64,000 nt of DNA, taken from the NCBI RefSeq assembly GCF_002252505.1, contig NZ_NNRL01000163.1, positions 625,981 to 689,980 of the forward strand, read 5' to 3'. Positions 20,442-48,739 of the stretch are shown here, piece by piece. A model generated the notes under the pieces. That model had not been told where the DNA came from. It searched no databases and was given only the letters and a program-made list of their open reading frames with translations. Every line of letters begins with the position of its first letter. Position 1 is the stretch's first letter. The translations under genes and the position numbers were made by a program. This stretch comes from Brucella grignonensis (lineage in GTDB: Bacteria > Pseudomonadota > Alphaproteobacteria > Rhizobiales > Rhizobiaceae).

Positions 20442-21011
20442 ATGATGAGCAGCGGACTTAAGAAGCCAGAATGGGCAGGCCAGGAACTTCGGCTCGATCC
20501 GTTTCATCTTCCGCAGGTCGTGACCTATGCGGCAGAGGATTGCGACGCAGATGTAACCTTCACTATCAGTGAACGTGGTGCAGTCATCCGCCAGATCCTG
20601 CCTTCGAGCGGCCTGCCCATGTCGATCGCACTGCCGATTAATGCGTTTGTTGGCGTAGCTGCCCGTGCTGTGGAAGATGAGTTTGGTGAAATCACCGTAA
20701 CGCTCGAGCTGATGCACGAAGATCCGCAGCTTTCCGTGCCACTGCTGGTTGCTCATGATCTGACCGATGTTGCTGCTGACTGGCGTGCATGGGCAGCAGC
20801 CTTCAGCCTGCCAATGATGCTGGTGGAAGAAGATGGTGTTGCTCGTCCGCTTTATGAAAGCACTGGTCCGGTTCGCACGGGAGAGCCACAGGCGCGCCGT
20901 CAGGGACAGGAACCGCGCCGCCGTCGCCCACGCTTCCTTGCTCGTCGCAAGACCGGTTCGCTGGGGGTTCGCATGGTCATTGAAGGCCGTGAAATTATCG
21001 CCAGAAATTGA
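20442..21011 (+). CDS. DUF6101 family protein
   Basis: 189-residue cytoplasmic protein with no signal peptide or membrane helix. It opens WAGQELRLDPFHLPQVVTYA, and its middle (about 40-130) alternates predicted strands, e.g. SIALPINAFVGVAARAVED. A strongly basic Arg-rich stretch lies near 145-170 (RRQGQEPRRRRPRFLARRK). This matches the Rhizobiales DUF6101 family, whose function is unknown. The basic segment could bind nucleic acid, but that is speculative. The 278-base gap upstream holds the previous terminator and, just before the gene, two small hairpins (about 20358-20376 and 20379-20402) that would lie in its 5' leader. Confidence 0.8.
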   Translation: MMSSGLKKPEWAGQELRLDPFHLPQVVTYAAEDCDADVTFTISERGAVIRQILPSSGLPMSIALPINAFVGVAARAVEDEFGEITVTLELMHEDPQLSVPLLVAHDLTDVAADWRAWAAAFSLPMMLVEEDGVARPLYESTGPVRTGEPQARRQGQEPRRRRPRFLARRKTGSLGVRMVIEGREIIARN

Positions 21012-21019
21012 AATGAAAC

Positions 21020-21125
21020 TAGAGCATTTGCAGCAAAAGTGCGAAGCGGTTTTGCGTCGGATAATGCGAAAAAAACAAAGAGATAGAGCATTTCCAATGA
21101 TTCAAGAAAAACAGGAAATGCTCTA
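21020..21125. repeat. Mosaic palindromic repeat, full-length copy
   Basis: 106 bp bounded by the inverted ends TAGAGC and GCTCTA. The first palindrome covers about 21022-21067 (GCATTT...AAAAGTGCGAAGCGGTTTT...ATAATGC). A purine-rich linker (AAAACAAAGAGA) follows, then a second palindrome from 21084 to 21125 (TAGAGCATTTCC...GGAAATGCTCTA). Almost the same sequence recurs at 57678-57782 and, inverted, at 31301-31403. Confidence 0.9.
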
Positions 21126-21142
21126 AGGCAGTCATCACATTC

Positions 21143-21156
21143 ACGTGTGAACACGT
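21143..21156. promoter_or_regulatory. Perfect 14-bp palindrome upstream of the candidate sRNA
   Basis: ACGTGT-GA-ACACGT, a perfect inverted repeat with a 2-base centre, the size of a typical dimeric repressor or activator site. It sits about 30-44 bases before the likely sRNA start. The regulator is unknown. Confidence 0.45.
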
Positions 21157-21186
21157 TCTCGTCGGATTTCTACACTATCTAAAGGA

Positions 21187-21319
21187 TAACGCACCACTCG
21201 GTGGTCGTCTGGAAAGATGAAGGACCTTTCCAGATATCAAAGTCCCCGATGCCGGAGCAACCAACTTGGCTGACCTCCAGCAAGCCACCCGGATGGTAAC
21301 CCCATCCGGGTAATTTTTT
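21187..21319 (+). ncRNA. Candidate small RNA with four hairpins and intrinsic terminator
   Basis: No plus-strand protein gene lies here, yet the sequence folds into ordered hairpins ending in a strong terminator. Stem 1 is ACCAC/GTGGT (21193-21197 with 21201-21205). Stem 2 is CTGGAAAG/CTTTCCAG (21209-21216 with 21226-21233). Stem 3 is GGAG/CTCC (about 21254-21278). The terminator is ACCCGGATGG/CCATCCGGGT (21287-21296 with 21302-21311) followed by six Ts. A CTATCT box at 21175-21180 is close to the rhizobial -10 consensus, giving a start near 21187 and an RNA of about 133 nt. ACCTCC (21273-21278) could pair with Shine-Dalgarno sequences. It is convergent with the enoyl-CoA hydratase gene. The general form recalls trans-acting alphaproteobacterial sRNAs, but I cannot name the family. 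Confidence 0.6.
21287..21319 (+). terminator. Terminator of the candidate sRNA
   Basis: Ten-base-pair stem (21287-21296 with 21302-21311) followed by AATTTTTT on the plus strand. The T run on the plus side and its absence on the minus side show it serves plus-strand transcription. Confidence 0.88.
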
Positions 21320-21326
21320 GTTCAGA

Positions 21327-22076
21327 TTACTTTTTACGACTAAGAAACGCCATCACGGCTTCGCGCGCTTCGTTCGAGGTAAGCCGTTCGGAAAAATGCT
21401 TTGCTTCCCGTGCAATGCGGTCAGCAACGGGTTCAGCAGGCATCCGCATCAGGCTGCGTGCAATCTGCATGGCTTGCGGAGGCTTGGCCGCTATTTCCTC
21501 AGCAGCTTTCAGTACTTCTGCTTCAAGCTCGCTGCTTTCGACGACCTTATAGACAATGCCTGCCTCAAGGGCTGCCTGCGCATCAAAGCCATGGCCCAGC
21601 GCCAGAAGGGCGAATGCCTTCTGATGGCCCATTAATGGTGGGGCAAGCAGGCTGGATGCCGCTTCCGGTACAAGTCCAAGATCAACAAATGGCGTGCGGA
21701 ACAGCGCGTGGCTGGTGGCAAATGTCAGATCGCAATGAAGATGAATTGTTGTGCCGATCCCAATGGCCAAGCCATCGACGCCCGAGACAATTGGCTTTTT
21801 CGCGCCTGAAAGAGCGCCAAGAAAATCCAGAATATCATTACCCATGCTGCCGCCAGAAGCCGCAGCCATGAAATCTTGCATATCGTTGCCGGACGAAAAA
21901 GCACCCGGAACACCGAGAAACACATGTACGCGCACGGCGTCGTCTGCATCGCCATCAATAAGCGCCTTGGCCATGGTGGCATACATGGCACGCGTAATGG
22001 CATTCTTCTTATCAGCGCGGTTAAGCCGGATGATCTGCACCGGGCCATTGCGTTCGATCAGAACATGCTCGCTCAT
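21327..22076 (-). CDS. Enoyl-CoA hydratase/isomerase family protein
   Basis: 249-residue crotonase-fold enzyme. Conserved blocks are IIRLNRADKKNAIT, the oxyanion-hole segment FSSGNDMQDF and a second block KKPIVSGVDGLAIGIGTTIHLHCDL. FVDLGLVPEAASSLL carries the usual active-site Glu position. It could be a hydratase or an enoyl-CoA isomerase, since both share these motifs. Start ATG 22076 (MSEHVLIERNG) has GGAGG upstream within the end of the acyl-CoA dehydrogenase gene and lies 2 bases after that gene's stop, so the pair is coupled in a fatty-acid or branched acyl-CoA oxidation operon. Confidence 0.9.
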   Translation of the reverse strand: MSEHVLIERNGPVQIIRLNRADKKNAITRAMYATMAKALIDGDADDAVRVHVFLGVPGAFSSGNDMQDFMAAASGGSMGNDILDFLGALSGAKKPIVSGVDGLAIGIGTTIHLHCDLTFATSHALFRTPFVDLGLVPEAASSLLAPPLMGHQKAFALLALGHGFDAQAALEAGIVYKVVESSELEAEVLKAAEEIAAKPPQAMQIARSLMRMPAEPVADRIAREAKHFSERLTSNEAREAVMAFLSRKK

Positions 22077-24300: not shown

Positions 24301-24333
24301 AAAAATAAAAAGGCCGGGCATGGACCCGACCTT
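24301..24333 (-). terminator. Terminator of the cold-shock gene
   Basis: On the minus strand, AAGGTCGGG pairs with CCCGGCCTT (24325-24333 with 24310-24318) and runs into TTTTATTTTT. It is 111 bases after the cold-shock gene stop, leaving a structured 3' region with a further inverted repeat around 24411-24440. Confidence 0.85.
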
Positions 24334-24444
24334 CATAAGTCTCAACAATCAGTGCCAGTACATCCGTGGTCAAAGACTGGAGACAAATTTCTTTGCACAA
24401 TAATCATTCGAGCAAAGCTTTTAAAAGCCCTGCTCGAACAAGCA

Positions 24445-48505: not shown

Positions 48506-48567
48506 GATTTTCTTGTGCGCTTTTGCCGTTTCAGCGTCAAGCTTTGGCGTGAATGAATTGGTCGGTT

Positions 48568-48672
48568 TAGAGCATGTCTCCCAAAAGCGGAAACCGGTTT
48601 TGGGATGGAGACATGCGTAAAAACAAAAAGATAGAGCATTTCGAATGATTCCATTTAAACCGGAATGCTCTA
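48568..48672. repeat. Mosaic palindromic repeat, full-length copy with variant first half
   Basis: 105 bp with TAGAGC/GCTCTA ends. The first palindrome is GCATGTCTCCCAAAAGCGG...CCGGTTTTGGGATGGAGACATGC (about 48572-48616). The linker is AAAACAAAAAGA, and the second palindrome, TAGAGCATTTCG...CGGAATGCTCTA, ends at 48672. The first half differs from the 21020 copy while the second half is alike, so halves are exchangeable. Confidence 0.88.
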
Positions 48673-48739
48673 GCTGGACATTTTCGAGCATAGCTATATC
48701 TCTTGAGCGGTGGAATTTTGACAGGGAGTTGAGTTGTTC

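What the first reader, a model, noticed from the sequence alone, without database searches (positions are those of the whole stretch)
21020..21326. Unannotated structured RNA candidate with its own terminator, next to a repeat
The plus strand between the DUF6101 gene and the convergent enoyl-CoA hydratase gene holds no protein gene. It does hold four ordered stems ending in a ten-base-pair stem plus six Ts (21287-21319). A rhizobial-type -10 (CTATCT 21175-21180) places a start near 21187, for an RNA of about 133 nt. ACCTCC (21273-21278) could block ribosome sites. The terminator direction is opposite to the neighbouring gene, so it cannot be the end of that gene. Hairpins and terminator are seen directly; transcription and a trans-acting role are inferred.
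Basis: partly seen in the sequence, partly recalled or inferred. Interest (0 to 1): 0.75.

Follow-up and report, generated by a model that had tools for sequence, protein, structure and literature searches.

The report
Brucellaceae anti-Shine-Dalgarno small RNA candidate
A short stretch between two genes carries a three-hairpin RNA whose middle hairpin close relatives have kept almost letter-perfect, and it looks like a small regulatory RNA that could cover ribosome-binding sites of other messages, though no transcript has been shown.

Summary
The structures are at the stated coordinates, and relatives show they are not chance. On the + strand, 21191-21319 holds three hairpins. H1 (21191-21258) changes sequence but keeps pairing: 8 of 21 pairs have changes on both sides, shuffles 2.6. 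H2 (21268-21286) is GGCU/AGCC with GACCUCC in its loop. H3 (21287-21311) plus six T is a terminator. GGCTGACCTC lies downstream of DUF6101 in 31 of 40 near and 0 of 48 more distant sequences. The 31 fall in one clade of 34 rows, where only 2 of 60 fourfold-degenerate DUF6101 sites are invariant. Wobble pairs favour the + strand. A conserved block upstream (21134-21189, holding CTATCT) is found in 19 of 31, without a recognisable -35. In most of the other 12 a different hairpin follows the DUF6101 stop directly, so there the element looks 3'UTR-derived. Best reading: an RNA family that I did not find described, probably trans-acting by pairing with GGAGGU sites. Transcription, 5' end and targets are not shown; no Rfam family reaches its threshold.

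The parts
20442..21011 (+). DUF6101 gene, same strand, upstream; probably shares terminator H3
   Evidence: PF19596 E 1.4e-85; directly upstream on the same strand in 22 of 22 loci
21020..21126 (.). dispersed 105-bp repeat, not part of the RNA
   Evidence: 40 places scored in the own genome; other copies in the window
21134..21189 (+). conserved block, inferred promoter region; dyad TCACATTCACGTGTGA 21135-21150, -10-like CTATCT 21175-21180
   Evidence: profile match in 19 of 31 core-bearing sequences, 14 of which built the profile; no -35 recognisable, no scan hit
21187..21319 (+). inferred transcript of about 133 nt
   Evidence: 5' end is inference from the -10-like site; 3' end from the terminator; not observed
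21191..21258 (+). hairpin H1
   Evidence: 8 of 21 pairs with changes on both sides, shuffled mean 2.6, 0 of 500 as high
21268..21286 (+). hairpin H2, GGCU/AGCC stem with GACCUCC in the loop
   Evidence: GGCTGACCTCC intact in 30 of the 31 sequences that carry GGCTGACCTC; stem never varies in A2, so covariation is silent
21273..21278 (+). ACCTCC, anti-Shine-Dalgarno-like loop motif
   Evidence: read directly; conservation
21287..21319 (+). hairpin H3 and T-tract, intrinsic terminator
   Evidence: at least 6 T in the 10 bases after the stem in 31 of 31
21327..22076 (-). convergent enoyl-CoA hydratase/isomerase gene
   Evidence: PF00378 E 2.4e-41

Best explanation
A Brucellaceae small RNA of about 133 nt (about 21187-21319, + strand) made of hairpins H1, H2 and H3. 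Supported here: the three-hairpin RNA is under selection on this strand, and the GGCUGACCUCC hairpin is its most constrained part. Inferred: in this lineage it starts from a promoter in the 21134-21189 block and/or is released from DUF6101 transcripts that end at the same terminator; it acts in trans by pairing ACCUCC (extended UGACCUCCA) with GGAGGU(CA) ribosome-binding sites, lowering translation of selected mRNAs. In lineages without the block, the H2-H3 unit would be a 3'UTR-derived product of DUF6101.
For: Covariation in H1: 8 of 21 pairs, 0 of 500 shuffles as high, slid controls 2-5. GGCTGACCTC in 31 of 40 near sequences, in one clade of 34 rows with support 100/99, against 2 of 60 invariant fourfold-degenerate DUF6101 sites in the same 31. 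G-U cells 28 against A-C cells 7. Terminator tail in 31 of 31. Block in 19 of 31 ending just before H1. Single copy of GGCTGACCTCC in the own genome. Known rhizobial small RNAs with anti-Shine-Dalgarno loops (passages).
Against: No transcript data. No -35 and no promoter-scan hit. The block is not detected in 12 of 31. In the window's own longer RNA the CUCC is predicted paired with GGAG of H1 and H2 is then not formed; the fold that frees it is 1.9 kcal/mol less stable than the minimum. L079 has lost the CCUCC and L069 keeps only the terminator. No convincing target in the own genome.
Confidence: 0.5

Rival explanations
1. It is only the structured 3'UTR and terminator of DUF6101, and a roadblock between convergent genes: the hairpins protect and end the mRNA and do nothing in trans.
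For: Always downstream of DUF6101 on the same strand (22 of 22); H3 is the only + strand terminator-like site found after it; in 8 of the 12 block-less sequences the core starts 39-50 nt after the DUF6101 stop.
Against: A protective or terminating role does not require an invariant GACCUCC loop while other 3'UTR sequence turns over; the block and H1 in 19 of 31 suggest a separate start.
Confidence: 0.33
2. The functional RNA is on the minus strand, as 3'UTR of the hydratase gene.
For: In short forms the minus strand also shows a hairpin followed by TTTTT (read by eye).
Against: G-U against A-C cells 28 to 7; + strand T-tract in 31 of 31; the hydratase gene lies 1408-1427 nt from the DUF6101 stop in L066 and L065 while the element stays by DUF6101.
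Confidence: 0.05
3. The H2 loop acts in cis or as a decoy: it is bound by a ribosomal or other RNA-binding protein, or pairs within the DUF6101 mRNA, and does not regulate other mRNAs.
For: The motif resembles the 16S 3' end (recalled); GGAG of H1 can pair with CUCC of H2 in the window's copy.
Against: The GGAG partner is missing in short forms, which keep the loop. No protein evidence.
Confidence: 0.08

Closest known systems
alpha-r14 / NfeR1 (SmelA075, SmelA099) small RNAs of rhizobia; 'cuckoo' RNAs
   Same: Hairpins with an anti-Shine-Dalgarno loop; stems vary more than the loop (passages of PMC3927594 and PMC10746234); terminator hairpin (recalled).
   Different: Those carry CCUCCUCCC in each of three or four loops; here one loop with ACCUCC. 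No ar14 match among the Rfam hits to E 10. The cuckoo RNA paper itself was not held.
BbsR14 of Bartonella bacilliformis
   Same: Predicted stem-loops with an anti-Shine-Dalgarno motif in a related family (passage of PMC7717549).
   Different: Two loops with TTCCTCCTAA there; one GACCUCC loop here. No sequence comparison made.
3'UTR-derived small RNAs of bacteria (general, recalled)
   Same: Share the terminator of the upstream mRNA; the short forms fit this pattern.
   Different: The window's form has an upstream conserved block suggesting a start of its own; processing not tested.
Rfam Brucella families BASRCI27 and BASRCI408
   Same: Same bacterial family; sub-threshold matches in relatives L046, L052 and L020.
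   Different: Those matches trace to dispersed repeats beside or inserted in the element, not to H1-H3 of the window, which has none at gathering score.

Membership tests
alpha-r14 / cuckoo RNA | CCUCCUCCC in several hairpin loops | tested here: not met
   one ACCUCC loop only; no ar14 hit up to E 10
alpha-r14 / cuckoo RNA | regulated targets through the loop | not testable with these tools
   no expression data
any Rfam 15 family | score at or above gathering threshold | tested here: not met
   window: 2 gathering matches, neither here; 20950-21500 to E 10: 6 matches, all far below gathering, best Hrs10 on the minus strand, 24.8 of 108 bits
structured RNA | compensatory changes in stems | tested here: met
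   H1 8 of 21 pairs; H2 invariant and H3 nearly so, silent; replacement hairpin of short forms weaker: 3 pairs, 24 of 500 shuffles as high
structured RNA | strand polarity of wobble pairs | tested here: met
   28 G-U against 7 A-C cells; 13 against 4 pairs
trans-acting bacterial small RNA | own promoter or processed 5' end | tested here: inconclusive
   conserved block in 19 of 31, no -35, no scan hit
trans-acting bacterial small RNA | discrete transcript | not testable with these tools
   no RNA-seq or northern data
trans-acting bacterial small RNA | conserved complementary target | tested here: inconclusive
   searches gave no convincing target in the own genome

The most novel reading that the evidence does not exclude
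One small RNA locus caught in two states within one bacterial family: an autonomous gene (promoter block, H1, H2, H3) in some species and a 3'UTR-embedded element with a replaced first hairpin in others, with only the anti-Shine-Dalgarno hairpin and terminator kept. In the autonomous form, GGAG of H1 could also mask the loop, a two-state switch that sets when the loop is free.
Probability: 0.2. Interest if true: 0.6.

Novelty: new member of a known kind. Interest (0 to 1): 0.42.

Why it matters
If true it adds a clade-wide RNA family to Brucellaceae, where about 40 small RNAs have northern support and only a handful have known roles (abstract and passages of PMC12772402). The short invariant loop makes the proposed action directly testable, and the two genomic arrangements would let one ask how a small RNA gene and a 3'UTR element turn into one another.

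Tried and rejected
Rfam gave no family for the element. In 12 relatives, matches to E 0.05 were 6, to BASRCI408 and BASRCI27, all below gathering and due to dispersed repeats.

A covariance model of the core (24 of the 31 sequences; the 7 with a long insert in the terminator loop were left out) was searched in 297 genomes of the order: 8 have E <= 0.001, own included. Of the other 7, only G115 (L188, E 5e-7) shows GCTGACCTCC before a terminator; L192 shows GACCTCC before one, and the remaining 5 look like terminators only (by eye). The G115 element is not found in the 4 other genomes of its genus, so I do not count it as a relative. The bare motif GCTGACCTCC-N{1,6}-AGC occurs in 136 of 199 genomes of the order and means nothing alone.

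An 18-codon frame in H1 was rejected (A2, by eye). Targets: of 30 loci from the 12-mer search the script read 20 before it failed; none had a start codon at the right distance followed by more than 83 codons. TGGAGGTC before ATG occurs 15 times in the own genome against 2 for the reversed pattern; two are paralogous amino-acid ABC transporter genes, but there the site lies in the coding end of the gene before (by eye), which can explain its conservation. A 15-nt complementary start site of an accessory gene in 4 relatives also overlaps coding sequence, and the gene has no match in the own genome. The dyad block with up to 3 mismatches occurs once in the own genome, at this locus. DUF6101 in viral contigs: none.

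Literature, listings only unless said: DUF6101 0 papers; searches listed no paper whose title or abstract start describes this RNA; the 10-mer is in 101 papers, the 15 listed unrelated by title. Passages seen: PMC7717549, PMC3927594, PMC6234868, PMC10746234, PMC12772402. PMC4845025: listing and abstract start, and a find with 0 hits. Supplementary lists of Brucella small RNAs could not be read, so an entry there is not excluded. Classical Brucella species were not among the named loci, so their orthologue was not examined.

Full report
What is there. The window belongs to an Ochrobactrum-type Brucella genome near B. pituitosa: DUF6101 is 100% identical to that of NZ_PYSY02000001, and the 200 bases after the repeat match G020 at 97% over 193 bases, whose contig has the same length as that record. 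Between DUF6101 (20442-21011, +) and a convergent enoyl-CoA hydratase gene (21327-22076, -) lie a dispersed repeat (21020-21126) and then single-copy sequence. The single-sequence fold of 21187-21319 has z -4.0; the stretch before H2 alone only z -1.8.

Relatives. The 200 bases match 22 of 60 genomes, own included, all of one genus. In 22 of 22 loci DUF6101 lies directly upstream on the same strand and a hydratase gene converges. From the loci held that have a DUF6101 match I read up to 420 bases after its stop: 88 distinct sequences, a few cut short by contig ends. One search gave loci for 30 places only, and G006, whose DUF6101 is broken there, was not read. GGCTGACCTC was the search string, so its presence is the criterion: it is in 31 of the 40 sequences with DUF6101 above 75% identity and in none of the other 48. 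By eye the 9 near sequences without it hold no altered version; L069 keeps the terminator only. On a DUF6101 tree of 43 rows the 31 lie in one clade of 34 (support 100/99); the 3 exceptions are L069, L074 and L077, and the 9 rows outside all lack it.

What is conserved. GGCTGACCTCC is intact in 30 of 31; L079 reads GACCTCA. In the same 31 only 2 of 60 fourfold-degenerate DUF6101 sites are invariant. All 31 have at least 6 T in the 10 bases after the terminator stem. Seven loci carry a long insert in the terminator loop and still keep the stem (by eye).

RNA structure and strand. On 14 long-form sequences (A2) RNAalifold gives H1, H2, H3 and a small 5' hairpin in the block. H1 has 8 of 21 pairs with changes on both sides, shuffles 2.6, 0 of 500 as high; slid controls 2-5. 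H2 never varies and H3 hardly, so they add no covariation. G-U cells number 28 and A-C cells 7, in 13 and 4 pairs of H1-H3, which favours the + strand. In terminator stems read by eye, L028, L046, L047 and L051 have a + strand wobble and L079 a minus strand one. L020 and L021 fit the consensus badly, probably misaligned. In 8 short forms a different hairpin after the DUF6101 stop has compensatory changes too, more weakly: 3 pairs, 24 of 500 shuffles as high. The sequence before H2 folds with z below -1 in 27 of 31 and below -2 in 21 of 31.

Promoter block or 3'UTR. A block at 21134-21189 matches its profile in 19 of 31; 14 of these built the profile and 5 did not (E about 1e-7 to 9e-7). None of the 9 near sequences without the core has it. 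In six it starts 6-7 nt after the DUF6101 stop. I read it as a promoter that may need an activator; this is inference. In the 12 others the block is not detected, and in 8 of these the core starts 39-50 nt after the DUF6101 stop, among them B. tritici, B. pecoris, B. pseudintermedia and Falsochrobactrum tianjinense. There the RNA would have to come from DUF6101 read-through or a start inside that gene. The tree needs two changes for the block and does not settle which state came first.

How it could work. ACCUCC mirrors the 16S 3' end (recalled) and would pair with GGAGGU ribosome sites. In isolated H2-H3 of the window most of the motif is predicted unpaired, though the H2 stem itself has a probability of only about 0.3; in the longer RNA CUCC pairs with GGAG of H1. 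The consensus fold, which frees the loop, is 1.9 kcal/mol less stable, which I judge within model error. Accessibility differs between relatives: high in several short forms, low in most long forms of the window's group. Whether that is a switch or noise is open. No target is convincing.

Known or new. No Rfam family reaches gathering score here. The nearest kind is the rhizobial anti-Shine-Dalgarno RNAs alpha-r14/NfeR1 with CCUCCUCCC in each loop (passages); that defining motif is not met. It may work like them but is not shown to be one of them. I judge it a new member of a known kind, of moderate interest because expression and targets are unknown.

Noticed in passing
window 48560-48726: The Rfam match to BASRCI27 (60.1 bits, gathering 59.8) overlaps a diverged copy of the dispersed repeat (48568-48672, 77.6% identical to 21020-21126), so this Rfam family partly describes a repeat.
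   Followed up: partly
window 24303-24422 (-): Match to the alphaproteobacterial small RNA family ar35 above gathering score (50 against 45 bits).
   Followed up: no
L046, L047, L048, L049, L051, L052, L079: Long repeat-like insert inside the loop of the H3 terminator, with the outer stem kept (by eye; partial BASRCI408/BASRCI27 matches in L046 and L052).
   Followed up: partly
L246, L247, L248, L253 near base 1485: Start region TTGGAGGTCAGCCAATGA of an accessory gene, complementary over about 15 nt to the H2 hairpin, in 4 relatives; overlaps the end of the gene before; gene not matched in the window's genome.
   Followed up: partly
L188 (G115), centre: Look-alike GCTGACCTCCAAAAGC hairpin plus terminator in another genus of the order, not found in 4 congeners.
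   Followed up: partly
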